Origin: Rhizobium oryzihabitans
GTDB lineage: Bacteria; Pseudomonadota; Alphaproteobacteria; Rhizobiales; Rhizobiaceae
Direction: 5' to 3'
Assembly (NCBI RefSeq): GCF_010669145.1
Contig: NZ_CP048632.1
Location: 2,624,501-2,688,500, forward strand
DNA length: 64,000 nt
How positions within the stretch are numbered: the first letter of the stretch is position 1; every line of letters begins with the position of its first letter. The translations under genes and the position numbers were made by a program. Of this stretch, positions 7,830 through 28,002 are shown one piece after another. The notes under the pieces are model-generated. The model saw nothing but the letters and a program-made list of their open reading frames with translations, had not been told where the DNA came from and ran no database searches.

Positions 7830-7841
7830 TGGGAGGAAGAC

Positions 7842-8732: not shown

Positions 8733-9058
8733 CAGGCGCAGGTGATCGTCCAGGGCTTTACGTGCGCTTTGCCGAAAGTGATCCCGCTGCCGTTGAGCAA
8801 CGGGCGGCGCAGATGGATGCTCACAAGGCTCATTTGCGCAATGAAGATGGTTTGCCGGAAGGGTTCAGAATTCTCGCATCCGGGCCGATGCAGGCGGAGC
8901 GCGGCGGTTCTGCCGCCGCTCTCATCATCGCTGAGGCCCGTTGCATCGAGGATGTCATCGCTTTCAGCGACGCCGATCCATTTGTCATTCATGGCGTCTA
9001 TAGTCGCATTCGTATTTTGAACTGGATACCGACGCTGTCGAGGGTTTCCGGGCTGTAA
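8729..9058 (+). CDS. graE: YciI-family small protein (GraE)
   Basis: This 109-residue protein begins in a four-base ATGA overlap with the graB stop. It has the ferredoxin-like YciI/dimeric alpha-beta barrel pattern: a strand GLYVRFAE, a helix with HKAHLR, GFRILASGPM, then the hallmark DADPFVIHGVY near the C-terminus. YciI-like proteins occur beside many aromatic-catabolism genes; some are lactonases or chlorohydroquinone dehydrochlorinase-like, but no activity is established for the gra member as far as I know. Its place as the last gene of the catabolic operon matches graE of the described cluster. A role in handling an unstable ring-cleavage intermediate is only inference. Confidence 0.8.
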   Translation: MTGAGDRPGLYVRFAESDPAAVEQRAAQMDAHKAHLRNEDGLPEGFRILASGPMQAERGGSAAALIIAEARCIEDVIAFSDADPFVIHGVYSRIRILNWIPTLSRVSGL

Positions 9059-9110
9059 CGCGTTTGAAATCCACGTCAGCGATGGCGGTTGATCACCATT
9101 AATATTTCAA

Positions 9111-9136
9111 TTGCAATTTTTGCAAATGCAACATTT
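9111..9136. promoter_or_regulatory. Second candidate GraR operator, upstream of graK
   Basis: Two TTGCAA hexamers (9111-9116 and 9120-9125) are followed by ATGCAACATTT. On the minus strand 9121-9136 reads AAATGTTGCATTTGCA, sharing its first 10 bases with the operator between graR and graD. The site lies about 150 bases before the graK start in a 229-base gap, suggesting graK has its own GraR-controlled promoter. Confidence 0.5.
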
Positions 9137-9287
9137 AATCGAAGGCGGGTGATATCGGCGATAGGTGTCTTGACAGGAGCGGGACACATATCAGGGTGGA
9201 GCAAGCCGGGTACCCACGGAGCAATCGCAAGAACGGGAAGACGTCGATCCATTCCGGATGGCGCGTTCATGCGTGAAAGGGAGGAAT

Positions 9288-10574: not shown

Positions 10575-10585
10575 CGAATGGCGTT

Positions 10586-10615
10586 GCCAGCTGCGGATTG
10601 ACATCCGCGGCTGGC
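10586..10615. terminator. Bidirectional terminator between graK and telA
   Basis: A 13-bp stem with one mismatch (GCCAGCTGCGGAT / ATCCGCGGCTGGC) closes a TGAC tetraloop and is followed by CTTTAT. It fills the gap between the convergent graK and telA stops; its right arm ends one base from the telA stop codon. Confidence 0.65.
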
Positions 10616-10616
10616 T

Positions 10617-11945: not shown

Positions 11946-12190
11946 GCGGCGGCTCCCTGAACCGGTCCGAAAATATAAAATCCATGGTTGGCAATCAACA
12001 GAGGCATGGTTGAGGAAACGCCATGAACATTCGCCGCCGGCCGGGTTCTTTTGAATAATAATTTAATCGATTCCGCAAGCGTGGGTGGCGATCGAAGACG
12101 GGTTTCGAACTGCCGCTGGTCATTCAGGGGAGTTTGAAGGCTGCGGGAGGTGATGTTTCTGGGGAGGGAACATGCAAATTCATGGTCGGA

Positions 12191-12212
12191 GCTTCGGAAA
12201 TTCTCCCGAAGC
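12191..12212 (-). terminator. Weak hairpin after acvB
   Basis: GCTTCGG (12191-12197) pairs with CCGAAGC (12206-12212) 19 bases past the acvB stop, but no T-run follows on the minus strand. The rest of the 285-base gap between telA and acvB shows no gene or other motif that I can identify; it must hold the telA promoter. Confidence 0.3.
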
Positions 12213-12230
12213 CCCTCAGGTTAAAATGTT

Positions 12231-13616: not shown

Positions 13617-16213
13617 TTTCCGATCACTCCTCTGACGCCGCCGCTGATCAGAACCGTCGCGTCCATCAGCGCCAGAGCGGCATCTGCGCCGTTCTGCACG
13701 GCGAGGTAACGCGGTTCCCATTTCGGGTGGAACTTCGCCTTGAAGGCGCGAAGGCCCTTGAAGTTGTAGAAACGTTCGCCGTGTTCGAACAGCGTGCTGC
13801 CGATGCGGTCCCAGACGGGTGCTGCATCGCGCTTCGACATGCCGGACATGGGCGCCATGCCGAGGTTGAAGCTTTCATATCCCGCCTCGCGCAGATGCTG
13901 CATGATGCTGACGAAGAGAAAATCCATCGAGCCGCGCGGCGCATCCGGTGAAAAGCGCATGAGATCGACGGTGGCTTCCTTTTTCGTGTGCGTCACCATC
14001 AGATTGGCGAAAGCGGTGATCTTGCCGTCCTTGCGCAGAATGGCGACGGGCTGGGACAGGATGTAATCCGGCTCGAAAGCGCCAAGCGAAAAGCGTTTTT
14101 CCCGCGTGTTGTGATGCGCAAGCCAGCTGTCGGAGACCTGTTTCAGCTCATCCAGAATGGCCGGCACCTGCGCCCGTTCGATGACTTCGAAGGTCAGCCC
14201 ATCACGCGCGCCGCGGCTGAGCGACTGGCGCAGGTTCGCGAGCTTGCCGCCCTTCAGCTCGAAGGCGGTGAGATCGACCAGGGCCAGTTCGCCGAGCTTG
14301 AAGGCGCGCAGGCCGGCATCGGCACAATGGGAGAGAAGGAAGGGCGATATCTGGTAGAAGGCGGCGCGTGCGCCTGCCGAGCGGGCGGCCTCGACAAATT
14401 GCCAGACGAGATCGGGGAAATCCTCCTCGTCGCCGACCGGGTCGGCAAAGGCGATCCAGGAGCGGCCCTGAATGCCGTACATGATGAAGGCATTGCCGCT
14501 TTCCGAGAACATCACGTGCTTGTCGCCCATGCGCACCAGATTGGCGTCAGCCGCATCCTGCGTCATCACGATGTCAGTCGCGCGCACGACGTCGTCGGCC
14601 TCGATCGCGTCCGGTCTATAGGCGACCGGCCGCATGAGGCTGAAGATGGCGATGGTGGAAGAGGCGAGTACGAGGCCGAGAAGAGCGCGCAATCCGCGCG
14701 GCGCTTCTTCGGAGAATTCGAACTGCCACCACAATGTCTGGCTGTAATCCGTATCGCGGTAGACGAAGAGCAGGATGGTTGCCGCGCCCGCGACGATGAC
14801 GGCCATGGCGGCGAGCCAGCTTGGGCCCAGCGCCTGCTTTACCAGCGAGGCATGGCGGTTGAAGCTGCGCATATTGGCGGCAAGGGCCGCGATGAAGACG
14901 CCGAGGATGGCGGCCTCGAAGACCGCGATGGCCTTGAGAAGGGAGAGAACCAGCGCCAGCGACGCGGCGACCAGCGCAATCCACCAGGCGCCGTCAAGCC
15001 GTTGGCCGAGGCCGCGCGAGGCGACGACGAGCACGAGGCCGAGAATGCTGGTGAGAAAATGCGCGGCCTCGATGATCGGCAACGGCACGAAATTGGACAG
15101 GAAGTCCAGATTGCTGTCCGGCGTCGGCGTCACGCTCGAGAAGATCAGCATGGTGCCGAGGATCATCGCGAAGGTTGACAGCAGCGGCGGCGCGAGCCTG
15201 ACGGCAAGCTGGCTGATATCGGAGACTACGGGTTTTGCCGCGAACTGCTTCATTTCCGAGACGAGCATCACCAGAATGGCGACCACCAGCGGCAGGACGT
15301 GATAGATCACGCGGTAAAGAACGAGGCTTCCAAGCAGCTGGTCAACGCTGATGGCATTGCCGAGGCCCGCAACCATCACGGTCTCGAAGACACCGAGACC
15401 GGCCGGCACGTGGCTGAGGACGCCGAGGCCGACGGCGGTGGCGTAGATCGCGAAGAATGTCGGCCATCCGAGATGGGTGTCGGGCAAGAGCACGTAAAGT
15501 ACGGAGGCTGAGGCGGCGATATCGAAGGCCGAGACAAGGAATTGGCGCGAGGATGTGCGGCTGTCGGGAAGGCGAAGACGCCATGCGCCGAGCCGGATCG
15601 TATGGCCGTTGCGCCCGACATAGGCCGCGACGACGAGCACCGCGATGACGGCGAGTGCTGCGCCTCTGAGGATGACAGCATCAACCCCGATGATGGCGGC
15701 GATGCGCGGCGCGACGATGAAGGTGGAGACGGCGCTGACCGAAAGCAGGCCCAGCCCGAAGGAAAGCGTGACGAAGGCGATGACGCGGGCGATTTCGCCG
15801 GGCGAAAGCCCAAGGCGCGAATAGGCACGGAAGCGGATCGCGCCGCCGCTCAAAGGACCGAAACCGGCGGTGTTGCCGATGGCATAGGCGGCAAAGGCCG
15901 TCGCCGCCATGGGCGGGAACGGCAGCTTGCGGCCGATATATTCGATCGCATTGGCGTCGTAGAATATCAGCGCCAGAAAGCTGAGCGCGGTAAAGAGGAT
16001 GGCGAGGAGCACGGCCGAAACCGAGGTCTGCGTCAGCGCGTCGATGACATCGTCATAGCGGACTTCCGACGTCAGGTGATAGATGGCGAAGGTCATCATC
16101 ACGAAGACCAGCGTGATGGCGATCGCCGTCAGATAGGGCCGGTTTCTGGCAAAGAAGCTTTCAACCGCGGATTCTGCGACGTCGGTCTGTGTGATTTCGC
16201 TCTTGTCTGCCAT
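13613..16213 (-). CDS. lpiA: Lysyl-phosphatidylglycerol synthase/flippase LpiA (MprF family)
   Basis: The product has about 866 residues. Roughly the first 550 hold many membrane helices (UPF0104/flippase-type, including the SGGAIRFRAYSRLGLSPGEIARV loop), and the last ~300 form the cytosolic GNAT-like DUF2156 synthase domain that transfers lysine from Lys-tRNA to phosphatidylglycerol (segments NAFIMYGIQGRSWIAFADPVG and FNLGMAPMSGM are typical). Lysyl-PG lowers membrane negative charge under acid stress; the coupled acvB product removes it in the periplasm. The start is uncertain: an ATG at 16240 is followed in frame by one at 16213, and neither has a strong ribosome-binding site; I prefer 16213 for its charged, MprF-like N-terminus. 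Confidence 0.9.
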   Translation of the reverse strand: MADKSEITQTDVAESAVESFFARNRPYLTAIAITLVFVMMTFAIYHLTSEVRYDDVIDALTQTSVSAVLLAILFTALSFLALIFYDANAIEYIGRKLPFPPMAATAFAAYAIGNTAGFGPLSGGAIRFRAYSRLGLSPGEIARVIAFVTLSFGLGLLSVSAVSTFIVAPRIAAIIGVDAVILRGAALAVIAVLVVAAYVGRNGHTIRLGAWRLRLPDSRTSSRQFLVSAFDIAASASVLYVLLPDTHLGWPTFFAIYATAVGLGVLSHVPAGLGVFETVMVAGLGNAISVDQLLGSLVLYRVIYHVLPLVVAILVMLVSEMKQFAAKPVVSDISQLAVRLAPPLLSTFAMILGTMLIFSSVTPTPDSNLDFLSNFVPLPIIEAAHFLTSILGLVLVVASRGLGQRLDGAWWIALVAASLALVLSLLKAIAVFEAAILGVFIAALAANMRSFNRHASLVKQALGPSWLAAMAVIVAGAATILLFVYRDTDYSQTLWWQFEFSEEAPRGLRALLGLVLASSTIAIFSLMRPVAYRPDAIEADDVVRATDIVMTQDAADANLVRMGDKHVMFSESGNAFIMYGIQGRSWIAFADPVGDEEDFPDLVWQFVEAARSAGARAAFYQISPFLLSHCADAGLRAFKLGELALVDLTAFELKGGKLANLRQSLSRGARDGLTFEVIERAQVPAILDELKQVSDSWLAHHNTREKRFSLGAFEPDYILSQPVAILRKDGKITAFANLMVTHTKKEATVDLMRFSPDAPRGSMDFLFVSIMQHLREAGYESFNLGMAPMSGMSKRDAAPVWDRIGSTLFEHGERFYNFKGLRAFKAKFHPKWEPRYLAVQNGADAALALMDATVLISGGVRGVIGK

Positions 16214-16808: not shown

Positions 16809-16863
16809 TCCGGCGCGGTTGCGCGCCGGACGAAGGATGAAAACGGGGCGCTTTACGCGCCCC
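16809..16863. terminator. Two convergent terminator hairpins
   Basis: Two perfect stems lie between the convergent small-membrane-protein and dipeptidase genes. TCCGGCGCG / CGCGCCGGA with a GTTG loop (16809-16830) follows the plus-strand gene. GGGGCGC / GCGCCCC (16845-16863) spans the dipeptidase stop codon and is followed on the minus strand by GTTTTC, fitting the dipeptidase terminator. Confidence 0.65.
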
Positions 16864-17893
16864 AGCTTTTCTCCAGCACGCGCACCCAGTTGCCATGGCA
16901 GATCTTGGCGAGTGCGTCGTCGTCATAACCGCCCTTGCGCAGAGCCTCGACCAGCAATTGCAGGTCGGCTGCATCCTTCATGGCGGCGGGAATGGTGGTG
17001 CCGTCGAAGTCCGAACCGAGGGCGACGTGATCGATGCCGATGCGGTTGACGATATAGTCCACGTGGCGGACCAGTTCGTTCAGGTCCGTGTTCGGGTTCT
17101 TCACGCCATCCTGACGCAGGAACAGAACGCCGAAATTGATGCCGGCAAGGCCGCCCGTGTCGCGGATGGCGTCCAGCTGGCGGTCCGTCAGGTTGCGGCT
17201 GTGATTGCACAGCGCATAGGCGTTGGAATGCGATGCCACCAGCGGCGCATCGGAAATCTTGGCGATATCCCAGAAACCCTGCTCGTTCATGTGCGACAGG
17301 TCGACCATGATCTTCAGTTCGTTGCAGGTCTTCACCAGTCGCTTGCCGGCATCGGTGAGGCCGGGGCCAATATCCGGCGTCGACGGGAAACGGAAGGGAA
17401 CACCGTAAGCGAATATGTTCGGGCGGCTCCAGACCGGTCCGAGCGTGCGGAGGCCTGCCTCATGCAGCACGTATAATGCATCCAGATCGGCGCCGATCGC
17501 TTCTGCGCCCTCGATATGGAACACGGAGGCGAAGGCGCCTTCAGCCATGGCGCTGCGAATATCGGCGGCCGTGCGGCAGATCTTGAGTGCGCCTGCGGAT
17601 TGCTTCTCGGCGCGGAACAGCAGCCCCGCCATCGCAAGCGTCGCCTTCAGCGCGTCCGCCTCGGTCGGTGTCGAATAATCGCCGTTTGCGTCCTTTTCCA
17701 TGCTGAGCGAGGGCACGTAGGCGGCGCAGAGACCGCCGGCCAGGCCGCCCTTCTTCGCACGCGGCAGGTCGATGTGGCCGACCGTATCCCCTTCGATGAG
17801 AAGCGTTTCGGGAGAAGCATTGCCCGATCGCCATAACCGCAGAAGCACGTCGTTGTGGCCGTCAAAGACGGGTACGGTTTTTTCATCGGTCAT
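16853..17893 (-). CDS. Membrane-type dipeptidase, peptidase family M19
   Basis: This zinc dipeptidase of ~346-348 residues has the M19 (renal dipeptidase) metal centre. Numbered from the upstream start at 17899, His15 and Asp17 (GHND), bridging Glu130 (HIEGAEA), His203 (DLSHMNEQGF) and His224 (ASHSNAYAL) are visible, with a late GSDFDG. M19 enzymes cleave dipeptides and, unusually, accept a D-residue at the C-terminal position. No signal peptide is present, so it is probably cytosolic here. It is divergent from the adjacent Dpp-type importer, implying that it processes imported dipeptides. Two ATGs lie six bases apart; the second (17893) is better spaced from the AAAGGTGA site. Confidence 0.88.
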   Translation of the reverse strand: MTDEKTVPVFDGHNDVLLRLWRSGNASPETLLIEGDTVGHIDLPRAKKGGLAGGLCAAYVPSLSMEKDANGDYSTPTEADALKATLAMAGLLFRAEKQSAGALKICRTAADIRSAMAEGAFASVFHIEGAEAIGADLDALYVLHEAGLRTLGPVWSRPNIFAYGVPFRFPSTPDIGPGLTDAGKRLVKTCNELKIMVDLSHMNEQGFWDIAKISDAPLVASHSNAYALCNHSRNLTDRQLDAIRDTGGLAGINFGVLFLRQDGVKNPNTDLNELVRHVDYIVNRIGIDHVALGSDFDGTTIPAAMKDAADLQLLVEALRKGGYDDDALAKICHGNWVRVLEKSWGA

Positions 17894-18131
17894 GGTCATT
17901 CACCTTTGGATATGCGGAGCCGCGCGGGCGCGCGTCCGTCAGACTTTGTGGGAATTGGTAGAGGAAAGGTCAAGGCGGGAGCAAATGCAATCCGTGCATA
18001 GGCTCTGCCAAATTTGGAATTGGTCGCGCCTCGTTTGCTCATGGTAATCGCGGGGAAACATAAAAAAAATGACTGGATTGGGGCAGACCCATACCGTTTT
18101 CCGAAAAATAAGGTCCGAAAGGGGATTTTCG

Positions 18132-19727
18132 ATGATTTCAAGACGCAACCTGCTGATTGCTGGCGCAGCCGTACCGTTCCTGTCCTATGCGCGCATTCCG
18201 GCATTCGCCGCAACGCCCAAGGATATTCTGGTCGTTGCGCAGCAGCTGGACAACATGACGAGCCTTGATCCGCATGAAGGCTTCGAAGCCGTCGGCGGTG
18301 AAATCATGTCCAACATGTACCAGAAGCTCGTGCGCGCCAATCGCGAAGATTCCACCAAGGTCGATCCGGTCATCGCGAAATCCTGGGAAGCCGATGCTGA
18401 CAGCAAGGTCTTCACCTTTGTCATCGGTGACGAAGCGACCTTCTCCAGCGGCGCGAAAGTCACGGCGGAAGATGTTGCCTTCTCGCTGCAGCGCGCCATC
18501 AAGATGAACAAGAGCCCGGCCTTCATCATCAGCCAGTTCGGCTTCACTGCTGAGAATGCCGAGACGACCATCGTTGCCGCCGATGACAAGACGGTGAAGC
18601 TGACGACGGCGAAGCCGACCGCCATCTCCTTCCTGCTTTATTGCCTCTCCGCCAATATCGGCGCGATCGTCGAAAAGAAGGCGGTTCTCGCCAATGCTTC
18701 CGGCGAAGATCTCGGCAATGGCTGGCTGCAGAAGAACAGCGCCGGTTCCGGCGATTTCATGCTTCAGGCCTGGAAGCCGAGCGAAAGCGTCGCACTCACG
18801 GTCAACCCGAACGGCCCTTACAAGGGTAACATCAAGCGCATCATCCTGCGCCACGTCACCGATCCGTCTTCCCAGCTTCTGATGCTGCAGAAGGGCGATA
18901 TCGACATTGCCCGCGACCTCACTTCGGAACAGCTGCGCAGCGCGCAGAATGACGCGAATATCGAGCTGGATCGCAAGAGCATTGCCTCGCTGGTGCTGAT
19001 CTCGCTCAACCAGGGCAATGAGAACCTTGCCAAGCCACAGGTCTGGCAGGCCATCAAATGGGCGCTGGACTACAAGGGCATGCAGGAAAACATCGTTCCG
19101 CTGTCCCACAAGGTTCACCAGAGCTTCGAGCCGGAAGGTTTCCCCGGCGCCGTCAACGACATCCCGTTCCAGCGGGACGTCGAAAAGGCCAAGGCACTGA
19201 TGGCGGAGGCCGGCCTTGCCGACGGTTTCGAAATCAGCATGGACCACTATTCCGCGCAGCCCTATCCGGACCTGGCGCAGGCCATCCAGGCAAACCTTGC
19301 TGATATCGGCATCAAGGTACGTCTGCAGTCGGCTGAAAACCGTCAGGTCCTGACCAAGATGCGCGCCCGCGAGCACCAGATGGCGCTTTCTGCATGGGGT
19401 ACGGATTATTTCGATCCGCATTCCAACGCGGATGTCTTCAACATCAACAAGGACAATGGCGACGACGCCAAGTCGAAGCCGTTCCTGTGGCGTTCGCGTT
19501 TCAAGAACGACGATTTCGCTGCCAAGGCGGAAGCCGCCCGCGACGAGAAGGACCCGGCAAAGCGCGTGGAGCTTTATGAAGCCCTGCAGCGCGAGCACAT
19601 GCAGAACAGCCCGTTCGTCTTCATGTTCCAGACGACAAAGACGGCTGCCTTCCGCAAGGGCGTTTCCGGTTTCGAACTCGGCGTTCTCTCCGAGGGCAAT
19701 TCCTACCACGATGCGAAGAAAGCGTGA
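18132..19727 (+). CDS. Peptide ABC transporter, periplasmic binding protein (SBP family 5)
   Basis: The ATG at 18132 follows AAAGGGGA; the frame opens 63 bases earlier without signal features. The N-terminus MISRRNLLIAGAAVPFL is a twin-arginine (SRRNLL) export signal with cleavage near AFA-A. The 531-residue protein matches family 5 (DppA/OppA) solute-binding proteins: an early DPHEGFEAVGGEIMSNMYQKLV segment, TAEDVAFSLQRAIK, and a late FMFQTTKTAAFRKGVSGF. It would capture short peptides in the periplasm for the two permeases and two ATPases that follow. The gene faces away from the M19 dipeptidase gene across 238 bases, which hold no obvious operator. Confidence 0.88.
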   Translation: MISRRNLLIAGAAVPFLSYARIPAFAATPKDILVVAQQLDNMTSLDPHEGFEAVGGEIMSNMYQKLVRANREDSTKVDPVIAKSWEADADSKVFTFVIGDEATFSSGAKVTAEDVAFSLQRAIKMNKSPAFIISQFGFTAENAETTIVAADDKTVKLTTAKPTAISFLLYCLSANIGAIVEKKAVLANASGEDLGNGWLQKNSAGSGDFMLQAWKPSESVALTVNPNGPYKGNIKRIILRHVTDPSSQLLMLQKGDIDIARDLTSEQLRSAQNDANIELDRKSIASLVLISLNQGNENLAKPQVWQAIKWALDYKGMQENIVPLSHKVHQSFEPEGFPGAVNDIPFQRDVEKAKALMAEAGLADGFEISMDHYSAQPYPDLAQAIQANLADIGIKVRLQSAENRQVLTKMRAREHQMALSAWGTDYFDPHSNADVFNINKDNGDDAKSKPFLWRSRFKNDDFAAKAEAARDEKDPAKRVELYEALQREHMQNSPFVFMFQTTKTAAFRKGVSGFELGVLSEGNSYHDAKKA

Positions 19728-20742
19728 CATTGAACAAGCGCGTCAAAAGCATATCGTCGATACTGAGCAGCGTCATTCTGACGCTGTTCGGTTTGATGGT
19801 CATCACCTTCATGATCGGGCGCGTCATGCCCGTCGATCCCGTCATTGCAGCGGTCGGCGACAACGCGCCTGAAGACGTCATCGTGCGCGTGCGTGCGGAA
19901 ATGGGCCTCGACCAGCCGCTGGTCGTGCAGTTCTTCCATTATGTCTCGCAGGTTCTGCACGGCGATTTCGGTAACTCCATCCTGACCCGCAATCCGGTCT
20001 GGGTGGATATTACCCGCGTCTTCCCGCCACGTTCGAACTTGCCACGGCAGCCCTCATTCTCGCAGCCCTGATCGGCATTCCGCTCGGCGTCTGGGCCGCC
20101 GTCAGGCAGGGCAAGACGACCGACCAGATCATCCGCATCGTCTGCCTTGCCGGCCATTCCGTGCCCGTCTTCATGCTGGCGCTGATTTCGCTGCTGGTAT
20201 TTTACGCCACGCTCGGCGTCGCGCCCGGACCGGGCAGGCAGGACATCATCTATGACGGCATGATCTCGCCGGTCACCGGCCTGATGACTGTCGACACGCT
20301 GCTTGCCGGCGACTGGGGCGCGTTTTACGACGCACTTGCCCATATGGTGCAGCCGGTCTGCATTCTCGCCTATTTCAGCATGGCCTATATCACCCGCATG
20401 ACGCGCGCCTTCATGATCGACGCGTTGAAGGGTGAATATGTCATCACCGCCCGCGCCAAGGGCCTGTCCGCCATGACCGTCATCTGGGGACACGCCTTCC
20501 CGACGGTTGCCGTGCAGCTCGTCACGGTTCTCGCACTCACCTATGCCGGCCTTCTCGAAGGCGCCGTGGTGACGGAAACCGTCTTCAGCTGGCCGGGCCT
20601 TGGCCAATACCTCACCGTCTCGCTCATGAACGCGGACATGAACCCCGTCGTCGGAGCAACCCTGTTGATCGGCCTGATCTATGTCGGCCTCAACCTGCTC
20701 GCAGACGTGCTTTACCGAGTAATGGATCCTCGCGTTCGATGA
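19724..20742 (+). pseudogene. Dpp-type peptide ABC permease 1, frameshifted (DppB-like)
   Basis: The 5' part (GTG at 19724, overlapping the preceding stop as GTGA) encodes a normal DppB N-terminus including GLDQPLVVQFFHYVSQVLHGDFGNS, then shifts to nonsense after about codon 101. The other frame resumes immediately with ATFELATAALILAALIGIPLGVWAAV and continues to a normal C-terminus with the EAA-loop region (DALKGEYVITARAKGLSAMTVIWGHAFP). Restoring one G near 20026 (CCCGCC to CCCGGCC) gives one continuous ~339-residue permease with six membrane helices. The rest is undamaged and the operon is otherwise intact, so a sequence error is more likely than real inactivation. Confidence 0.85.
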
Positions 20743-21641
20743 TGTTAGCTAATTTCAGAAACTGGGCTCTGGATGAGACTCCGCATTCCCGCAGCCAGGC
20801 TGCCTGGGGAAACCGGTACCGCATCTGGCTGAACCTCAAGTCCAACCCGCTGGCGGTGATCGGTCTGACCATCATCGTCGTCTTCATTGCGCTGTCTTTG
20901 CTGGCGCCGCTCATCGCGCCTTACGATCCGGCCGCGCAGAACCTCGGCAACCGCCTTGCCTTCCCGAATGCCGCGCACTGGTTCGGCACGGATGAGCTGG
21001 GCCGTGATATCCTTTCGCGCATCCTTTACGGCGGCCGTGTCACACTCGGCATGGTCATCGCCGTCGTCGTTCTCGTCGCGCCGATCGGGCTCGCCATCGG
21101 CTGCATCGCCGGTTATTTCGGCGGCATCGTCGATACGGTGCTGATGCGGGTGACGGACGTGTTCCTGGCCTTCCCGCGCCTTATCCTCGCGCTCGCCTTC
21201 GTCGCGGCGCTGAAGCCCGGCGTCGAAAGCGCCATTCTCGCCATCGCGCTCACCGCATGGCCGCCTTATGCGCGTCTTGCGCGCGCCGAAACCATGACGG
21301 TGCGCGGCAGCGACTTCGTCGCGGCCTACCGGCTGACCGGCGCTTCCGCCTGGCGCATCATCGCCCGTCACATCGCGCCGCTCTGCGTGCCGAGCCTTAT
21401 CGTGCGCATCACGCTCGACATGAGCTCGATCATCATCACCGCCGCCAGCCTCGGCTTCCTCGGCATGGGTGCCCAGCCGCCTTCGCCGGAGTGGGGCGCG
21501 ATGATCGCAACCGCCAAGCGCTTCATCTTCGAACAATGGTGGGTCGCCACCATTCCGGGCATTGCCATATTCCTCGTTTCGCTCGCCTTCAACTTCCTTG
21601 GTGATGGTCTGCGCGACGTGCTCGACCCGAAGGGACATTGA
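20739..21641 (+). CDS. Dpp-type peptide ABC permease 2 (DppC-like)
   Basis: This 300-residue inner-membrane permease overlaps the preceding gene by four bases. It has the DppC/OppC N-terminal extension before the first helix (NPLAVIGLTIIVVFIALSLLAPLIAPYDP), the GTDELGRDILSRILYGGRVTLGM signature and the EAA loop MTVRGSDFVAAYRLTGASAWRIIARHIAP that docks onto the ATPase subunits. It ends FNFLGDGLRDVLDPK, the usual C-terminus. Three bases separate it from the first ATPase gene. Confidence 0.9.
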   Translation: MMLANFRNWALDETPHSRSQAAWGNRYRIWLNLKSNPLAVIGLTIIVVFIALSLLAPLIAPYDPAAQNLGNRLAFPNAAHWFGTDELGRDILSRILYGGRVTLGMVIAVVVLVAPIGLAIGCIAGYFGGIVDTVLMRVTDVFLAFPRLILALAFVAALKPGVESAILAIALTAWPPYARLARAETMTVRGSDFVAAYRLTGASAWRIIARHIAPLCVPSLIVRITLDMSSIIITAASLGFLGMGAQPPSPEWGAMIATAKRFIFEQWWVATIPGIAIFLVSLAFNFLGDGLRDVLDPKGH

Positions 21642-21644
21642 GCC

Positions 21645-22475
21645 ATGCTGGTCGAAATCGAAAATCTGAAGATCGCTTTCCAGACCCGTACCAGCCGTTT
21701 CGAGGCGGTGCGCGGTGTTTCCATGAAGCTTGGAACCGAAAAGCTCGGCATCGTCGGTGAATCCGGTTCGGGCAAGAGCCTCACGGCGCGTGCGCTGATG
21801 AAGCTTCTGCCCTCCAATGCCGATATCAGGGCCGACAAGCTCTCCTTCGACGGTATCGACGTGCTTTCCGCCAGCGAAAAGCAGATGCGCCAGATCCGGG
21901 GGAAACGGGCGGGTTTCATCCTTCAGGACCCGAAATATTCGCTGAATCCGGTCAAGACCATGGGCGCACAGATCGCGGAAGCATGGCGCGCCCACAAGGG
22001 CGGCAGCAAGCGCGCGGCCATGGAAGCGGCCATCGCCCTGCTCGATCAGGTGAAAATCCGCAATCCGCGTCAGGTTGCGTCGTCCTATGCGCATGAGGTT
22101 TCCGGCGGCATGGGCCAGCGCGTGATGATCGCCATGATGCTGGCGCCCGATCCGGAACTCCTGATCGCCGACGAACCGACCAGTGCGCTCGACGCCACGG
22201 TACAGGCGGAAATCCTGCGGCTGATCGAGGAGCTGGTATCTGAACGCGGCATGGGCCTCATCCTCATCAGCCACGACCTGCCGCTCGTCTCGCATTTCTG
22301 CGACCGCGTCGCCGTCATGTATTCCGGCCGGGTGATGGAGGAGCTGAAGGCGTCCGAACTCCTGAAGGCCGAACATCCCTATACAAAGGGACTTCTGAAC
22401 TGCATTCCCTCGCTGACGCATCCGCGCGAGCGTCTTCCCGTTCTCAACCGTGATGCAGCGTGGTCCAGCCAATGA
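21645..22475 (+). CDS. Peptide ABC transporter ATP-binding protein (DppD-like)
   Basis: This 276-residue ATPase has Walker A GESGSGKS, the Q-loop within AGFILQDPKYSLNPV, signature SGGMGQRVMIAMML, Walker [13 protein letters not shown] and the switch histidine in LISHDLPLV. The C-terminus ends HPYTKGLLNCIP, the oligopeptide-transporter-type extension. The signature SGGMG differs slightly from the LSGGQ consensus, as is common in the D subunit of Dpp/Opp systems. It overlaps the next ATPase gene by four bases, and the two would form a heterodimer. Confidence 0.9.
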   Translation: MLVEIENLKIAFQTRTSRFEAVRGVSMKLGTEKLGIVGESGSGKSLTARALMKLLPSNADIRADKLSFDGIDVLSASEKQMRQIRGKRAGFILQDPKYSLNPVKTMGAQIAEAWRAHKGGSKRAAMEAAIALLDQVKIRNPRQVASSYAHEVSGGMGQRVMIAMMLAPDPELLIADEPTSALDATVQAEILRLIEELVSERGMGLILISHDLPLVSHFCDRVAVMYSGRVMEELKASELLKAEHPYTKGLLNCIPSLTHPRERLPVLNRDAAWSSQ

Positions 22476-23212
22476 TCGACGTCGATAATCTCCGTATCAA
22501 GTTCGGCGACCGTGAAGTGGTGAAGGGCGTGTCCTTTTCGGTCGAAAAGGGCGGCAGCTTCGGCATTGTCGGCGAAAGCGGCTCGGGCAAGTCCACCATC
22601 CTGCGCGCCATGGCCGGTCTCAACGAAAGCTGGGAAGGCCGCATCGCCTTTGCCGGCAAGGACGCGCCGCTGAAGCGCACGCCGGAATTCTTCCGGCAGG
22701 TGCAGATGGTGTTTCAGGATCCTTACGGGTCGTTGCATCCGCGCCAGACCATCGACCGTATCCTCAGCGAATTGCCGCTGGTTCACGGCATGGACAATAT
22801 CGAAAAACGCATCCAGCAGGCCTTGTCGGATGTGGCCCTGCCGCAGGCGGTGCGCTTCCGTTACCCGCACCAGCTTTCCGGCGGCCAGCGCCAGCGTGTG
22901 GCGATTGCGCGTGCGTTGATTGCCGACCCGCAGGTGCTGCTGCTCGATGAGCCGACTTCGGCGCTCGACGTTTCGGTTCAGGCGGAAATCCTGAACCTGT
23001 TGCAGGACCTGCGTGCGGCGCGCAACCTCACCTATATCCTCGTCAGCCACAATCTGGCTGTTATCGCGCATCTTTGCCCGCAGGTGGGCGTGATGCTGAA
23101 CGGTGAAATGGTCGAGCAGCTGAGCGCGGGCGATCTGCGCGAGGGCCGTATCAAGCACCCACATACGGAAGAGTTGCGCAGCCTGAGCATCAGGCTGGAA
23201 GAGCCGGCCTGA
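22472..23212 (+). CDS. Peptide ABC transporter ATP-binding protein (DppF-like)
   Basis: The start at 22472 overlaps the previous stop (ATGA); a GTG 12 bases upstream is less likely. The 246-residue product has Walker [10 protein letters not shown], signature [15 protein letters not shown], Walker [12 protein letters not shown] and switch HNLAVIAHL. It pairs with the DppD-like subunit. The C-terminus is shorter than a typical DppF. It is the last transporter gene; a palindromic repeat separates it from the D-aminopeptidase gene, which may still be co-transcribed. Confidence 0.9.
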
Positions 23213-23223
23213 AGTTGGTTTGG

Positions 23224-23328
23224 GATGACGGAGAGGGAGCACAAGCTTTCCTCCGTCATCCTCGCTCCTGAGGCGAGGATCCATGCACCCGTGAGAGGTA
23301 GGTCCTCGGGTCAAGCCCGAGGATGACG
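23224..23328. repeat. Palindromic extragenic repeat, family 2, copy A
   Basis: Three palindromes are stacked in the gap after the dppF-like gene: GATGACGGAG / CTCCGTCATC (23224-23233 and 23251-23260), ATCCTCGC...GCGAGGAT (23258-23280) and TCCTCGGG / CCCGAGGA (23303-23323). The last unit, followed by GATGACG, is repeated in the gap before the LysR gene at 24.9 kb. Such mosaic palindromes are common between rhizobial genes. Confidence 0.8.
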
Positions 23329-23391
23329 TCGAATATGCCGCGTCGGTTCCTCGTCCGTCCGGTTTTCAATGAAGACACAAGAGACCGAACA

Positions 23392-24903
23392 ATGTCACAG
23401 CAATTCGACTGGAACGCCGCTTCAACGCTTGCCGAGAGCTTCGTCTCGCAATGGGCGGGCAACGAGCCGGGCGGGGCAGTCATCGGTTTCGATCTCGACG
23501 GCATCCGTTTCGCCCATGCGGGTGGCGTGGAAAGCCTTTCCACCTTCACACCCTTCACGCCGAAAAGCGTGGTGCGTTATGCCTCCGTCACCAAACACGC
23601 CTTCTGCGCCATGGTGCTTGCCCATTCTGATCTGATCGGGCTTGACGATCCGCTGGGCAAGCATCTGCCGGAGCTGCAATTGCCGCTCCGCGACGTCACG
23701 GTCGGGCAGGCGCTGGATATGAGCGGCGGGTTGCCGGACACGCGCGAATGCCTCTCGCTGCTTGGTCTTTCCGTCTACACCGAAACGAAGGCCGGTCCGC
23801 TTCTCGACTATATCTCGCGGTTGACCCGACTGAACTTCGATGCCGGCAGTGAGGTTTCCTATTCGAATACCGGCTATCGTCTGGTGGAAGCGGCGCTGGA
23901 GCGCCATGGTTTCCGTTTCGATGATTTCGTGCAGGCGCAAATTGCCGGCCCGTTCGGCGTTTTCCTGAAGGCGCCGGATGTCTGGAACGATCCGGTCGAT
24001 GGATTGGTACCCGGCTACTGGAAGGCGGAAAGCAACTGGCAGCTCTCGGCAGCCGGCCTGCATATTTCCGCTTCGGGCAGTCTTGCCGGCAGTGCCGAAG
24101 CGCTGACCCGCTGGCTGCAGGGCCTGATGCGGGGTGAGGGCAGCTTGGCGGGCGTTCTGGACGGGCTTTCCACCGAGCGGCCGCTCGCCGATGGACGGAT
24201 GAGCGAATATGGCCTCGGCCTGCGCTGGTCGCACCTTGGCGACAGGCGCTTCGTCGGTCACGGCGGTTCGCATCCGGGATACAAGACCTATTTCCTGCTC
24301 GATCCGGAAAACGGCACGGGTTTCGTCGTGGTGTCTAACCGCGAGGATACCAACGGCTTCAAGATCGCGCTGGAAAGCATGGCGGCCCTGACAGGTCTGC
24401 CTTTGCCCAAACCCGCCGCCAGCCTGCCGGAAGGCCTTTATGTTACTGAAAGCGGACCGTGGTGGCTGGAGATCAAGGGCAGCACATCCACTTTCATCGA
24501 TGGCGACGACACGCTTTATGAAGATGCCGATGGCTGGGTGTCATCGCGTTCGGCATCGTCGCCCATGCACCTGAAGCTCGAGGGTGATGCGATTATTGGG
24601 GAGGCAGGCCACGCCGCCCGCCGCTTCCTGCCGGTAGGCGATCATGCTGTGCCCGATGATCTTTCGGGGTCGTGGCGCTCCGATGAGGGAGCGGAATTTG
24701 CGATCAGCGGCTCCTCGCTGACGATGGGCATCGGCCCAACGCGACGCAGCATGCCTCTGAAGGCACTCGGCAATGGCCGTTTCCTCTTCACGCTGATTGA
24801 TGGGCCATGGACGAAGCGTGTCTGCCTCAATCGTTTGGGCGATGACCGGATCGAGCTGGTTTCCAGCCGCGCACGGATGATCGAATATTCGCGAAGCCGC
24901 TAA
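23392..24903 (+). CDS. D-aminopeptidase (serine beta-lactamase fold, DAP-like)
   Basis: The start at 23392 follows weak upstream signals but gives a 503-residue protein that aligns with D-aminopeptidase of Ochrobactrum anthropi (about 520 aa). The catalytic domain (1 to ~330) carries Ser65-x-x-Lys68 (YASVTKHAF), Tyr157-x-Asn159 (SYSNTGYR) and His290-Gly-Gly (VGHGGSHPGY), very close to the numbering of that enzyme. Two C-terminal beta-barrel domains follow, including RRFLPVGDHAVPDDLSG, where DAP places a loop into the active site. DAP releases N-terminal D-residues from peptides. No signal peptide is seen, so it should act in the cytosol on peptides delivered by the adjacent importer. Confidence 0.85.
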   Translation: MSQQFDWNAASTLAESFVSQWAGNEPGGAVIGFDLDGIRFAHAGGVESLSTFTPFTPKSVVRYASVTKHAFCAMVLAHSDLIGLDDPLGKHLPELQLPLRDVTVGQALDMSGGLPDTRECLSLLGLSVYTETKAGPLLDYISRLTRLNFDAGSEVSYSNTGYRLVEAALERHGFRFDDFVQAQIAGPFGVFLKAPDVWNDPVDGLVPGYWKAESNWQLSAAGLHISASGSLAGSAEALTRWLQGLMRGEGSLAGVLDGLSTERPLADGRMSEYGLGLRWSHLGDRRFVGHGGSHPGYKTYFLLDPENGTGFVVVSNREDTNGFKIALESMAALTGLPLPKPAASLPEGLYVTESGPWWLEIKGSTSTFIDGDDTLYEDADGWVSSRSASSPMHLKLEGDAIIGEAGHAARRFLPVGDHAVPDDLSGSWRSDEGAEFAISGSSLTMGIGPTRRSMPLKALGNGRFLFTLIDGPWTKRVCLNRLGDDRIELVSSRARMIEYSRSR

Positions 24904-24941
24904 CGGTCTGAAACCGATCCCATCGCGTCCCGCAAACTCGA

Positions 24942-25019
24942 CGTCATCCTCGGGCTTGACCCGAGGATCCATTGTCGCGCGTGGATCGTGGATCCTCGGG
25001 TCAAGCCCGAGGATGACGG
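24942..25019. repeat. Palindromic extragenic repeat, family 2, copy B
   Basis: Two facing copies of the unit TCCTCGGGnnnnnCCCGAGGA, at 24946-24968 and 24992-25012, are flanked by CGTCATCC and GGATGACGG, so the whole element is also a large inverted repeat. It lies between the D-aminopeptidase and LysR genes; an artificial upstream extension of the LysR frame runs through it. Confidence 0.85.
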
Positions 25020-25153
25020 AGAGAGAGGTTTGGCACCGTCTATCCGTAGTTTCGGGCTTTCTAAAAGGGTTTCAATCAGCCCTTATTGCTCCTAATAAAG
25101 ACCCCATGTTCCGGTTGAAGGCCGGGACGACATCTTTGTGGGAGAACAGGCCC

Positions 25154-26050
25154 TTGGAAGTCAAATGGCTCGAGGATTTCCTGGCGCTGGCCGGAACGCT
25201 CAATTTTTCGAAGGCGGCGGATGAGCGGCATGTGACGCAATCCGCTTTCAGCCGAAGGATCAAGCAGTTGGAAGCCTGGGTGGGCGCCACGCTGGTCGAC
25301 CGCGCCTCTTATCCCTCCCGGCTGACCGAAGCGGGGGTGAAATTCGTGCCGGTGGCGCAGGAAACGCTGAAACAGCTTTACCACGCCCGGCGCACTCTGC
25401 TTCAGGAGGAGGGGGCGGATGCGAAGACCGTGCGACTGACGGCGCTGCACACGCTGTCTTTCACCTTCTTTCCAGACTGGCTGAAAAGGGTAAACGAGAC
25501 GGCGGGGCCGCTGTTTTCAGTTTTGAGGCCCGATTCCGGCAGCATGGAGGAAAACCTTAATTCGCTGGTGGATGGGCAGAGCGATTTCCTTTTGACCTAT
25601 GCCCATCCCGAAGTGCCGATGCTGCTCGATGCGCAGACCTTCGAGTTCCGCGTGCTGGGTGCAGAAAATATCATTCCCGTTTCCGCGCCGGCGAAAGATG
25701 GTTCACCGCTGCATGAACTCGTGGAAAACGCGAAGAAACCCTTTGCATATCTGGATTACGAAAAGGCGTCGTTCTTCGGGCCGCTGCTGCGCGATCTCTT
25801 GAGCGCGCGCCTGCCGCAGTTCGAGCGGGTGCATGAGGGTAGCATGTCGGTGGGGCTGAAAGCCATGGCAATGGCTGGCTGGGGTGTCGCCTGGGTGCCG
25901 GAAAGCCTGATGCGGCACGAGCTGGACAGCGGCACGCTGGTGCGTGCCGCGGATCACAGTTTCGATATTGCCGTCGATATCAGGCTTTATCGTTCCAAGG
26001 AGAACCGCCGCCCCGTTGTCGAGCGCATATGGGCGGTTCTCGAAGATTGA
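25154..26050 (+). CDS. LysR-family transcriptional regulator
   Basis: The frame is open from 24956, but that part lies in a palindromic repeat and is not LysR-like. Homology begins at the TTG at 25154 (VKWLEDFLALAGTLNFSKAA), 9 bases after GGGAG, giving 298 residues, the normal LysR size. The N-terminal helix-turn-helix reads HVTQSAFSRRIKQLEAWVGATL; the remainder is the periplasmic-binding-protein-like effector domain. An ATG at 25106 would add 16 unrelated residues. It lies between the D-aminopeptidase and transaminase-like genes and is the obvious candidate regulator of the D-peptide block. Confidence 0.83.
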   Translation: MEVKWLEDFLALAGTLNFSKAADERHVTQSAFSRRIKQLEAWVGATLVDRASYPSRLTEAGVKFVPVAQETLKQLYHARRTLLQEEGADAKTVRLTALHTLSFTFFPDWLKRVNETAGPLFSVLRPDSGSMEENLNSLVDGQSDFLLTYAHPEVPMLLDAQTFEFRVLGAENIIPVSAPAKDGSPLHELVENAKKPFAYLDYEKASFFGPLLRDLLSARLPQFERVHEGSMSVGLKAMAMAGWGVAWVPESLMRHELDSGTLVRAADHSFDIAVDIRLYRSKENRRPVVERIWAVLED

Positions 26051-26056
26051 TCGTGG

Positions 26057-26923
26057 TCAGATCGCCGTGCGGCGGGCGTTTTCGAGATAAAGCGCGCGCA
26101 GGCGGCTCACCAGCGGGCCGGGCTTGCCATTGCCAACCGGCTTGCCGTCGATCTTCGTCACTGAAACCACGAAGTTGGAGGCGCTGGTGAGGCACGCCTC
26201 ATCGGCATTCAGCGCCTCTTCCAGCGTGAAAGGCCGCTCTTCCAGCGTGAAGCCGGCTTCCTTGGCCAGTTGCAGGGCGGCAAGGCGGGTGCAGCCGGGC
26301 AGGGTCTTGTTGCTGTTGCCGCGGGTGATGATCTTCCTGTCGCCGGTGATGATATAGGCGGTGGAGGATGCGCCTTCGGTGACAAAACCGTCCTCGATCA
26401 TCCACGCCTCGTCGCAGCCTTCGGCCTTGGCGATGCGTTTTGCCATCACCTGCGGCAGAAGGCAGACGGTCTTGATGTCGCGGCGCTCCCAGCGCTGGTC
26501 GGGAACGGATTTGACCGCAAGGCCCGCCTCTTCGACAGGGGTGCCGATGAGTTTCTTGGCTTGGGTGAACATCACCAGCGTCGGCTTCAAATCAGCGGAG
26601 AACAGGAAGTTGCGGTCTTCCGCACCACGCGTCAGCTGCAGGTAGATCATGCCTTCGACGAGGTTGTTGTCGGCGATCAGGCGGCGTTCGGCCTCGACGA
26701 TTTCCTTCGTCGTGACCGGCAGCGGCACGTCGATTTCACGGGCGCTGCGTTCAAGCCGGGCCATATGCAGGTCGCTGTCAATCAGCTTGCCTTCCAGAAC
26801 GGAGGTGACTTCATAAATGCCGTCGCCGAACAGGAAACCGCGGTCGAAGATGGAAAGGCGGGCGTCCGCCTCAGGCAGGAATTCGCCGTTGAGGTAAACG
26901 ATGCGACCGGGTTGGCTAGTCAT
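26057..26923 (-). CDS. Class IV aminotransferase, D-amino-acid transaminase-like
   Basis: This 288-residue PLP enzyme has the fold-type IV pattern: VYLNGEFLPEADARLSIFDRGFLFGDGIYEV at the N-terminus, Schiff-base Lys151 (RRDIKTVCLLPQV), the pyridine-N-contacting Glu183 (FVTEGASS) and the phosphate-binding GNSNKTLPG loop. Its DIK lysine context and length resemble bacterial D-amino-acid transaminase more than branched-chain transaminase, though aminodeoxychorismate lyase shares the fold. It would convert D-amino acids to 2-oxo acids. It is convergent with the LysR gene (6-base gap) and 20 bases downstream of the DmpA-type peptidase gene, with which it likely forms one transcript. Confidence 0.82.
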   Translation of the reverse strand: MTSQPGRIVYLNGEFLPEADARLSIFDRGFLFGDGIYEVTSVLEGKLIDSDLHMARLERSAREIDVPLPVTTKEIVEAERRLIADNNLVEGMIYLQLTRGAEDRNFLFSADLKPTLVMFTQAKKLIGTPVEEAGLAVKSVPDQRWERRDIKTVCLLPQVMAKRIAKAEGCDEAWMIEDGFVTEGASSTAYIITGDRKIITRGNSNKTLPGCTRLAALQLAKEAGFTLEERPFTLEEALNADEACLTSASNFVVSVTKIDGKPVGNGKPGPLVSRLRALYLENARRTAI

Positions 26924-26943
26924 GAAAACTCCGTCTGGAAAGG

Positions 26944-28002
26944 TCAGGCTGAAAGAAGGGTTTTGAGGGTATCGATGGAAATGGCCTCGACAGTTGAGAC
27001 TTTGCCGGTTGCGGCATTGAAGCCTATTGTCGTCGTTGCCGTGCAGAGCGAATTGAGGATCGCCTCTTCGCTCGCCTCTATGGCGGCCTCGAACAGCGGC
27101 GAAATCGCATCGTTGGAGAGTTCAGGGAAATCGGCGACGGCCTTGCGGCGCGCAGGTGTTTTGCGAAGCCGCTCGTCGGTCGAAAATGCCAGTGCATAGT
27201 CGCCGGAACCATTGCTGAGTGCGGCGCCCGTGCGGGCCAGCCCGCCGAAGCTTCTGGCGGCCAGACGCTTCAGATTGCGGGAGGAAAGCGGCGCATCGGT
27301 TGCGATGATGATGACGATCGAGCCGTCCTTGTCCTTGTGCTCCGGGCTCACATAGGGCTTGCCGCAGACGAGGAGATGGCCGCCATAGTTGGACTGTACG
27401 AGAACGCCGAGCGTATAGGTCTCTCCGGCGATGGTGACGATGCGCGAGGCGGTGCCGATACCGCCTTTCATGCCGAAAGCGACCGTACCGGTTCCGGCAC
27501 CCACGCCGCCCTCGGCCACCGGGCCTGTGGCCGCGTTTTGCAGCGCGGCTGATATCTCATCGACCGTCGGCCGGCCGGCACGGATGTCGTTCAGGCGGGA
27601 ATCGTTGGTTTCGCCGACGACGGCATTGATCGAGACGACTTTCTCATTGCCCGGCTGCGCCAGCGTATGGCGGTTGATTGCCTCGATGGCCCGGCCTGTC
27701 GCCAGCGTATTGGTGAGGATGACAGGTGTTTCGAGCTCGCCGAGTTCCTCGATCTGGGTGGAGCCGGCGAATTTGCCGAAGCCGTTATAGACGGCGAAGG
27801 CGGCGGGCACCTTGTCCTGAAAGAGATTACCGCCATGCGGAAGGATCGCGGTTGCGCCGGTGCGGATCGTGTCGCCTTCGATGACGGTCGAGTGGCCGAT
27901 GGTCACGCCTTCGACATCGGTGATGGCGTTGAGCGGGCCGGTCTCGAAATGGCCGGGCCGGAAACCGATATCGCGCAGTCTCTGGCGGGTCGTCTGATGC
28001 AT
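26944..28002 (-). CDS. DmpA-type L-aminopeptidase / D-esterase (family P1/S58, N-terminal nucleophile)
   Basis: This 352-residue protein matches DmpA of Ochrobactrum anthropi: GPLNAITDVEGVTIGHSTV at the N-terminus, LTNTLATGRAI, VVGETNDSRLNDIR, GGVGAGTGTVAFGMKGGIGTASR, and the autoproteolysis site Gly227-Ser228 followed by IVIIIATDAPL. Self-cleavage makes alpha and beta subunits and exposes Ser228 as the N-terminal nucleophile. LARTGAALSNGSGD beyond it is also characteristic. These enzymes release N-terminal L-residues from peptides and amides, and some cleave beta-peptides. It lies upstream of the transaminase-like gene in the D-peptide block. Confidence 0.87.
   Translation of the reverse strand: MHQTTRQRLRDIGFRPGHFETGPLNAITDVEGVTIGHSTVIEGDTIRTGATAILPHGGNLFQDKVPAAFAVYNGFGKFAGSTQIEELGELETPVILTNTLATGRAIEAINRHTLAQPGNEKVVSINAVVGETNDSRLNDIRAGRPTVDEISAALQNAATGPVAEGGVGAGTGTVAFGMKGGIGTASRIVTIAGETYTLGVLVQSNYGGHLLVCGKPYVSPEHKDKDGSIVIIIATDAPLSSRNLKRLAARSFGGLARTGAALSNGSGDYALAFSTDERLRKTPARRKAVADFPELSNDAISPLFEAAIEASEEAILNSLCTATTTIGFNAATGKVSTVEAISIDTLKTLLSA

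What the first reader, a model, noticed from the sequence alone, without database searches (positions are those of the whole stretch)
16853..28002. A catabolic block that looks specialised for D-amino-acid-containing peptides
Seven functions lie together: an M19 dipeptidase (a family tolerant of C-terminal D-residues), a Dpp-type importer, a D-aminopeptidase with the DAP triad, a LysR regulator, a D-amino-acid-transaminase-like enzyme and a DmpA-type peptidase. Single members are known, for example DAP and DmpA from Ochrobactrum, but the set reads as a complete route: import, trimming from the N-terminus whichever the stereochemistry, and deamination to oxo acids. Likely sources are peptidoglycan fragments, non-ribosomal peptides or opine-like compounds. 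I do not know of a description of this combined system.
Basis: inference. Interest (0 to 1): 0.72.

Follow-up and report, generated by a model that had tools for sequence, protein, structure and literature searches.

The report
Rhizobial D-peptide uptake and breakdown regulon
A set of genes for taking up and dismantling peptides that probably contain mirror-image amino acids travels together through many soil and plant bacteria and shares a conserved control site, which offers a testable natural role for enzymes so far known mainly as laboratory tools.

Summary
The window is from an Agrobacterium; M19 dipeptidase, Dpp-type importer, DAP-like S12 hydrolase, LysR, class IV transaminase (DAAT) and S58 (DmpA-type) peptidase lie as stated. 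The importer gene dppB is frameshifted here but whole in 42 of 44 relatives' orthologues. The block is real: of 58 loci found with the S12 gene alone as bait, 34 carry all ten genes. New evidence: (1) a LysR-type palindrome, ATGCA-N5-TGCAT, sits between M19 and the importer in 44 of 44 loci (at most one mismatch); (2) in 5 of 5 sampled genomes where DAAT-S58 lies elsewhere, both separate loci carry the exact palindrome, so they look like one regulon; (3) elsewhere S58 and the same LysR stand beside M55 peptidases, a family named D-aminopeptidase; (4) the S12 model matches Ochrobactrum D-aminopeptidase over its full length. Best reading: a regulated route that imports D-residue-containing peptides, trims them inside the cell and transaminates the D-amino acids. 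Stereospecificity and natural substrate are untested; opines are not supported. A new variant of a known kind; no description was found in the open-access library searched.

The parts
16853..17899 (-). M19 dipeptidase, probably cytoplasmic (no signal peptide seen by eye)
17985..17999 (.). LysR-type palindromic operator ATGCA-N5-TGCAT in the divergent M19/SBP promoter region
   Evidence: 42 of 42 intergenics within 1 mismatch, shuffles 5 of 840; the two loci left out there also have it; recurs at unlinked partner loci
18132..19727 (+). SBP family 5 substrate-binding protein of the importer (longest ORF from 18069)
   Evidence: PF00496 252.6 bits; nearer E. coli DdpA (187 bits) than DppA (105 bits)
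19724..20742 (+). DppB-type permease gene, split by a frameshift (gene calls 19724-20071 and 20161-20742)
   Evidence: ORF of at least 310 aa in 42 of 44 orthologues
20739..21641 (+). DppC-type permease
   Evidence: PF00528, OppC_N; best NCBIfam score D,D-dipeptide permease PRK09881 309.4, below cut-off 434; just over the cut-off of Opp2C 'nickel transporter permease' (300.7 against 300)
21645..22475 (+). DppD-type ATPase
   Evidence: PF00005; conserved in the block
22472..23212 (+). DppF-type ATPase
   Evidence: PF00005; conserved in the block
23392..24903 (+). S12 serine hydrolase of DAP architecture (longest ORF from 23323)
25154..26050 (+). LysR regulator of the unit
   Evidence: PF00126, PF03466; 16 of 18 family-wide hits lie within 10 kb of S12/DAAT/S58/M55 hits
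26057..26923 (-). class IV transaminase, D-amino-acid transaminase type (DAAT)
   Evidence: PRK06680 398.3 bits, cut-off 320; linked clade in the tree
26944..28002 (-). S58/P1 family peptidase (DmpA-type)
   Evidence: PF03576 358.2 bits; Gly-Ser nucleophile site aligned to DmpA Ser250

Best explanation
The block is a LysR-controlled catabolic regulon for small peptides that contain D-amino acids. The binding protein and the Dpp-type ABC importer bring peptides into the cytoplasm. There a DAP-type S12 enzyme removes N-terminal (probably D) residues, the S58 enzyme removes other N-terminal residues, M19 splits the last dipeptides including those with a C-terminal D-residue, and the transaminase turns the freed D-amino acids into 2-oxo acids. 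The LysR protein binds ATGCA-N5-TGCAT between M19 and the importer and switches both arms on when substrate is present. Shown by computation: gene content, conservation, rearrangement and replacement of members, the shared palindrome, folds and catalytic residues. Inferred: D-specificity, direction of transport, order of steps, inducer, and that this LysR binds this palindrome.
Against: No enzyme was assayed. S12 is only about 20% identical to DAP and its fold family includes esterases and beta-lactamases. DAAT has Phe where the Bacillus-type enzyme has H100. S58 relatives also cut beta-peptides (PMC10531186 passage). Of 58 named loci 10 lack LysR, DAAT and S58 in the stretch held and 10 others lack importer and LysR. 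The palindrome is missing upstream of S58 inside the block (0 of 41) and between S12 and LysR (0 of 37), in the LysR-side regions of L076, L077, L127 and L081, and in Paracoccus. S12 relatives at 42-51% identity have no M19, DAAT or S58 nearby in Ketogulonicigenium robustum, Pseudoroseomonas and Nitratireductor. Importer naming is mixed: SBP and DppC score higher with E. coli Ddp, but DppB, DppD and DppF with Dpp, and DppC just passes a nickel-permease model. dppB is split in this very strain.
Confidence: 0.7

Rival explanations
1. A general dipeptide/oligopeptide scavenging system with stereo-tolerant enzymes: mostly ordinary L-peptides are used and D-residues are incidental.
For: A paralogous M19-SBP-DppB-C-D-F operon lies elsewhere in the same genome (L068), and M19 hits are common (76 of 121 genomes). 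S58 and M19 families accept L-substrates (recalled).
Against: General scavenging does not need a D-amino-acid transaminase or a DAP-type enzyme; the linked DAATs form their own group in the tree, and partner loci carry M55 peptidases.
Confidence: 0.12
2. A pathway for one special amide or beta-peptide natural product (for example beta-amino-acid peptides, a non-ribosomal peptide or a beta-lactam-like compound) rather than for D-alpha-peptides in general.
For: BapA and DmpA cut peptides with N-terminal beta-amino acids (PMC10531186 passage); S12 folds also include esterases and beta-lactamases; DAAT His replaced by Phe; scattered, partly plasmid-borne distribution.
Confidence: 0.12
3. Cell-wall recycling: the block handles the cell's own peptidoglycan peptides, not food peptides.
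For: M19 relatives were solved with L-Ala-D-Ala and L-Leu-D-Ala mimics; D-Ala is abundant in wall peptides (recalled).
Against: Only 13 of 121 family genomes have the S12 gene, too patchy for housekeeping; it occurs on 31 plasmid or megaplasmid records. Foreign wall fragments remain possible within the best explanation.
Confidence: 0.05
4. The ABC system imports nickel or a nickel-chelate, and the hydrolases are neighbours.
For: DppC passes the NCBIfam Opp2C 'nickel transporter permease' cut-off by 0.7 bits; plasmid records name it nikC; NikA is the top NCBIfam model for the binding protein, at 102.8 bits.
Against: 102.8 is far below the NikA cut-off of 393; the PDB best match is a peptide/signal-molecule binder and NikA scores 52.3 against 139.9 bits; four peptide- or amino-acid enzymes are conserved with it and no nickel enzyme is.
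Confidence: 0.02
5. Opine-like compounds are the substrate (part of the first reader's list).
For: Agrobacterium host; Dpp-type binding proteins include opine binders such as AccA.
Against: Binding protein scores 39.5 bits with AccA against 139.9 with its best match; none of the ten proteins matches an opine dehydrogenase or oxidase family in Pfam; the block occurs in many other genera.
Confidence: 0.02

Closest known systems
E. coli ddpXABCDF (D-Ala-D-Ala dipeptidase and transporter, NtrC/RpoN-controlled)
   Same: Dpp-family ABC importer encoded with an enzyme for D-residue dipeptides; window binding protein nearer DdpA (187 bits) than DppA (105), DppC nearer DdpC (249) than E. coli DppC (206). 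Operon function as in PMC8743547 passages.
   Different: Dipeptidase is M19, not the M15 DdpX; adds S12, S58, DAAT and a LysR gene; the DppB part, DppD and DppF score higher with E. coli Dpp (144, 223, 179) than Ddp (114, 219, 159); no Ddp or Dpp NCBIfam cut-off is reached.
Ochrobactrum anthropi D-aminopeptidase DAP (1ei5)
   Same: Same three-domain architecture and all six conserved residues named in PMC3347556.
   Different: About 20% identity; DAP proper is a separate gene in 11 of 121 family genomes, never at the S12 block; no match at E 1e-80 in this genome.
DmpA (1b65) / BapA / Pyrococcus 2drh, S58 (P1)
   Same: Family and Gly-Ser nucleophile site; DmpA Asn218 also conserved by my count on the printed alignment.
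   Different: Nearest is 2drh (249.5 bits) rather than DmpA (192.5); DmpA Tyr146 is Asn here.
Rhodobacter sphaeroides M19 dipeptidase 3fdg/3ly0
   Same: About 50% identity over the whole chain; 3ly0 holds an L-Ala-D-Ala phosphinate mimic.
   Different: That enzyme's gene context was not examined here.
Bacillus-type D-amino-acid transaminase (1daa)
   Same: Family, PLP lysine (K145) and R98.
   Different: H100 position is Phe in 47 of 47 block members including the window; below the TIGR01121 cut-off (220 against 277.45).
Peptide-importer operon of Rhodobacteraceae strain LCG007
   Same: Authors propose uptake and intracellular hydrolysis of D-amino-acid-containing peptides (PMC11747546 passages).
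   Different: [quoted passage not shown] no M19/S12/S58/DAAT set or operator in the passages seen.

Membership tests
DAP (S12 D-aminopeptidase) | Conserved residues S62, K65, Y153, N155, H287, G289 | tested here: met
   Aligned to S88, K91, Y180, N182, H313, G315 (526-aa numbering) (residue list PMC3347556)
DAP (S12 D-aminopeptidase) | Three-domain architecture of 1ei5 | tested here: met
   [not shown]
DAP (S12 D-aminopeptidase) | NCBIfam PRK13128 curated cut-off (443 bits) | tested here: not met
   71.7 bits, so DAP-like, not a DAP family member
DAP (S12 D-aminopeptidase) | C-terminal loop with an acidic residue near the active site (Asp481; role recalled) | tested here: inconclusive
   Nearly invariant Asp in the corresponding loop, but four columns off in the alignment; no coordinates inspected
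DAP (S12 D-aminopeptidase) | D-stereospecific N-terminal cleavage | not testable with these tools
   needs assay
S58/P1 (DmpA-type) | Family profile and Gly-Ser autocleavage nucleophile | tested here: met
   PF03576 358.2 bits; Ser228 aligned to DmpA Ser250, Gly-Ser kept in 52 of 52 rows
S58/P1 (DmpA-type) | DmpA Tyr146 | tested here: not met
   Asn in the window and in 2drh, Leu in BapA; S58 member, not a DmpA orthologue
M19 dipeptidase | Family profile and conserved motifs | tested here: met
   PF01244 364.6 bits. Rows: GSDFDG 61 of 61; SHSN 60 and THSN 1 of 61; SHMN 58 and SHLN 1 of 61 (one AHIT, one gap); FDGHND 43 of 61, the other 18 gapped at that N-terminal place in my gene calls. Metal-binding role of the motifs recalled
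D-amino-acid transaminase | NCBIfam PRK06680 cut-off | tested here: met
   398.3 against 320
D-amino-acid transaminase | TIGR01121 equivalog cut-off | tested here: not met
   220 against 277.45
D-amino-acid transaminase | R98-x-H100 carboxylate pair (role recalled) | tested here: not met
   Arg kept, His replaced by Phe; unlinked mid-identity DAATs also have Phe (17 of 17), so not cluster-specific
E. coli ddpXABCDF system | M15 D-Ala-D-Ala dipeptidase | tested here: not met
   none of the ten proteins matches an M15 family in Pfam
E. coli ddpXABCDF system | importer equivalog cut-off | tested here: not met
   PRK09881 309.4 against 434
E. coli ddpXABCDF system | NtrC/RpoN control | not tested
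   not examined
Nickel importer (Opp2/Nik) | NCBIfam Opp2C permease cut-off | tested here: met
   DppC 300.7 against 300
Nickel importer (Opp2/Nik) | NikA binding-protein cut-off | tested here: not met
   102.8 against 393

The most novel reading that the evidence does not exclude
A dedicated, horizontally mobile D-peptide regulon of alphaproteobacteria: one LysR subfamily with the operator ATGCA-N5-TGCAT governs interchangeable modules (importer, S12 or M55 D-aminopeptidase, S58, M19, D-transaminase), linked or split over the genome, tuned to a specific D-residue natural product from soil or the rhizosphere, and giving DAP- and DmpA-type enzymes a physiological role.
Probability: 0.4. Interest if true: 0.72.

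Novelty: new variant of a known kind. Interest (0 to 1): 0.55.

Why it matters
DAP-, DmpA- and D-transaminase-type enzymes are used to make and resolve D-amino acids, yet their natural roles are little known (recalled). A conserved regulon with a defined candidate operator makes the question testable: find the inducer and substrate, and D-peptide turnover in soil and rhizosphere gets genes that can be counted. It also offers a screen for D-peptidases: genes beside this LysR and palindrome.

Tried and rejected
Opines as substrate: rejected as above. 'S12 is the DAP orthologue': rejected by the NCBIfam cut-off and by finding true DAP as a separate gene in 11 of 121 genomes. True DAP beside a Dpp-type importer was seen in G162, G263 and G253, 3 of the 11 genomes looked at, so no general claim is made. 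Phe in place of DAAT H100 as a mark of the cluster: rejected, since unlinked DAATs share it. Palindrome upstream of S58 in the block: not found. Presence of the palindrome alone in 64 kb proves nothing (one hit; 2.7 expected within one mismatch); only its conservation and placement count. Class-wide search: 2 of 385 genomes with S12, one being the window's own, so the spread beyond the family rests on plasmid records and G307. G307 has no M19 in the stretch read. Literature: nine searches and one on M19, in an open-access library only, listed no description of this combined system; two returned no paper. Papers: passages only (abstracts among them) of PMC11747546, PMC3347556, PMC6403190, PMC8743547, PMC10531186; all others as search listings.

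Control caveats: the shuffles keep single-base composition only, and the loci are related, so 44 of 44 is not 44 independent events. The 25 loci counted were chosen as module loci; nine of the 25 have no exact site, and one of the 16 exact sites lies inside a permease gene (L176). Neighbour counts were made by hand from printed coordinates. Two loci (L055, L066) fell out of the set because of gene calling; one search shows they have the site (one mismatch; exact).
Full report
What is there. Ten genes fill 16853-28002: M19 (-), then diverging from it SBP-DppB-C-D-F-S12-LysR (+), then, convergent with LysR, DAAT and S58 on the minus strand 20 bases apart. The nearest named relative is Agrobacterium arsenijevicii (96% identity of S12). 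M19, S12 and S58 start without an evident signal peptide while the binding protein has one with an RR motif (read by eye), so hydrolysis is expected after import. The DppB-type gene is split between two frames; 42 of 44 orthologues in named relatives are whole, the exceptions being L064 and L066.

Is it a unit? The S12 protein alone was used as bait in named genomes: 58 loci. tblastn with the window's genes, recounted by script, gives 34 of 58 with all ten genes; 10 with M19-importer-S12 only (Brucella/Ochrobactrum type); 10 with M19-S12-DAAT (5 of these with S58) but no importer or LysR; L038 and L057 with all but the importer; L028 (M19, S12, LysR) and L060 (DppC-D-F, S12) are short contigs. 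The kinase and UgpC genes downstream of the block are shared by the 13 closest Agrobacterium-type loci only; the MprF-like gene upstream by 23. Gene order also changes while content stays: Paracoccus aminophilus pAMI5 (LysR and DAAT on the M19 side), Microvirga (M19-importer-S12-DAAT, LysR further on), Pseudochrobactrum (M19-importer-S12-LysR, no DAAT or S58 in the stretch), Neorhizobium NCHU2750, whose record names the last two genes dat and dmpA, and G307 of another order, without M19.

Family-wide test. The same 121 genomes were searched with S12, M19, DAAT, S58, SBP, M55 and LysR. S12 is in 13. M19 lies within 10 kb in 12 of 13, an orthologous SBP (66% identity or more) in 8, DAAT in 7, S58 in 6. 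Of 25 S58 hits 15 lie within 5 kb of a DAAT hit, 9 of them outside the block. Such a pair exists in 11 of 13 S12 genomes and 3 of 108 others (kinship not corrected). Of 18 LysR hits 16 lie within 10 kb of S12, DAAT, S58 or M55 hits.

The sister locus type. M55 (PF04951, 'D-aminopeptidase') has 13 hits, 7 of them within 1 kb of S58; none of the 25 S58 hits is near both M55 and S12. In L075, L076, L077, L126 and L127, S58-M55 is followed by a LysR (41-49% identical to the window's) and, divergent from it, an Amidohydro_3 protein and another Dpp-type importer (Pfam run on L075, the others by similarity to it and by the PF04951 search). L075-L077 also have DAAT beside S58; L126 and L127 do not. 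L129 and L131 show parts of this set. L074 has DAAT, M55 and S58 beside another Dpp-type importer without the LysR, and L128 has M55-S58 without LysR or importer in the stretch. A tree of 63 DAATs puts those linked to S12, S58 or M55 on one side of a split (24 rows, support 93/81; 23 rows 99/90), with L080 and L081, apart from unlinked DAATs; the exceptions are L026 and L030, which have a DAAT of another clade by S12. Two unlike D-aminopeptidase-type enzymes thus take a place next to the same S58, LysR and DAAT lineages, and a DAAT was replaced by another DAAT in place.

The operator. The M19/SBP intergenic region holds ATGCAATCCGTGCAT at 17985-17999, a palindrome with LysR-type T-N11-A symmetry (motif class recalled). 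Best matches within one mismatch occur in 42 of 42 intergenics (22 exact) against 5 of 840 shuffled regions; the two loci left out there have it too. Among M19-S12 loci, the three with LysR keep it (0, 1, 1 mismatches) and the ten without LysR do not. The nine intergenics whose loci lack LysR nearby (Brucella type) still have it, exactly. In G165, G266, G255, G243 and G225, where DAAT-S58 lies elsewhere, both loci carry an exact copy; in G165, G266 and G255 the only LysR hit is at the DAAT-S58 locus. So a LysR acting in trans can explain the copy at the block. In 25 module loci (368,314 bases) 16 exact copies occur, 15 in module promoters, against a mean of 0.75 in Markov sequences. It is absent upstream of S58 within the block, has no site within one mismatch in L074, L076, L077, L080 and L081, none in the LysR-side region of L127 (one one-mismatch site lies just before its S58), and none in Paracoccus. 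Among other clusters Microvirga and Pseudochrobactrum have it exactly, Neorhizobium NCHU2750 and G307 with one mismatch. Whole genome: nine exact palindromic sites in the window's genome; the other eight were not followed up.

How it most likely works. See best explanation. Each enzyme's D-activity is inference from family and fold; the strong new evidence is that the genes belong to one regulated pathway. Against it stand S12 relatives without M19, DAAT or S58 nearby in K. robustum, Pseudoroseomonas and Nitratireductor, a K. vulgare locus with S12, a LysR at 40% and a Dpp-type importer but M20 and S9 peptidases instead of M19 and DAAT, the missing members in some loci, and the split permease gene in this strain.

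Novelty. Importer-plus-D-dipeptidase operons are known (E. coli ddp, PMC8743547 passages), and uptake of D-containing peptides has been proposed for one marine strain (PMC11747546 passages). The present combination, the sister M55 type and the shared palindrome were not found in the open-access searches listed under Tried and rejected. Hence a new variant of a known kind.

Noticed in passing
19724-20742: DppB-type permease gene frameshifted; 42 of 44 relatives' orthologues whole. Real lesion or assembly error unknown.
   Followed up: partly
L068 (G000:C4) 7706-15126: Paralogous M19-SBP-DppB-C-D-F operon followed by another LysR gene in the same genome, with unbroken permease genes; M19 hits occur in 76 of 121 family genomes.
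   Followed up: partly
window 24904-25153: Long inverted repeat (CCTCGGGCTTGACCCGAGG and its partner) between S12 and LysR, like an intergenic palindromic repeat element; a similar reading (MDPRLRSEDD) lies upstream of S12.
   Followed up: no
L026:11524-12390, L030:12354-13220: DAAT of a different clade sits by S12 in A. cavarae and an uncultured Agrobacterium MAG: in-place replacement.
   Followed up: yes
L153, L154: True DAP gene 10-16 kb from a further DAAT (62%) in two genomes, with ABC-type genes between.
   Followed up: no
L159, L161, L164: True DAP orthologues next to Dpp-type importers in three genomes.
   Followed up: no
L070:8841-11653, L071:8044-10800: Amino-acid-type ABC importer genes between DAAT and S58 in two genomes.
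   Followed up: no
L080:8179-10136: M19 (68%) directly beside DAAT (59%) with no S12, importer or palindrome in 18 kb.
   Followed up: no
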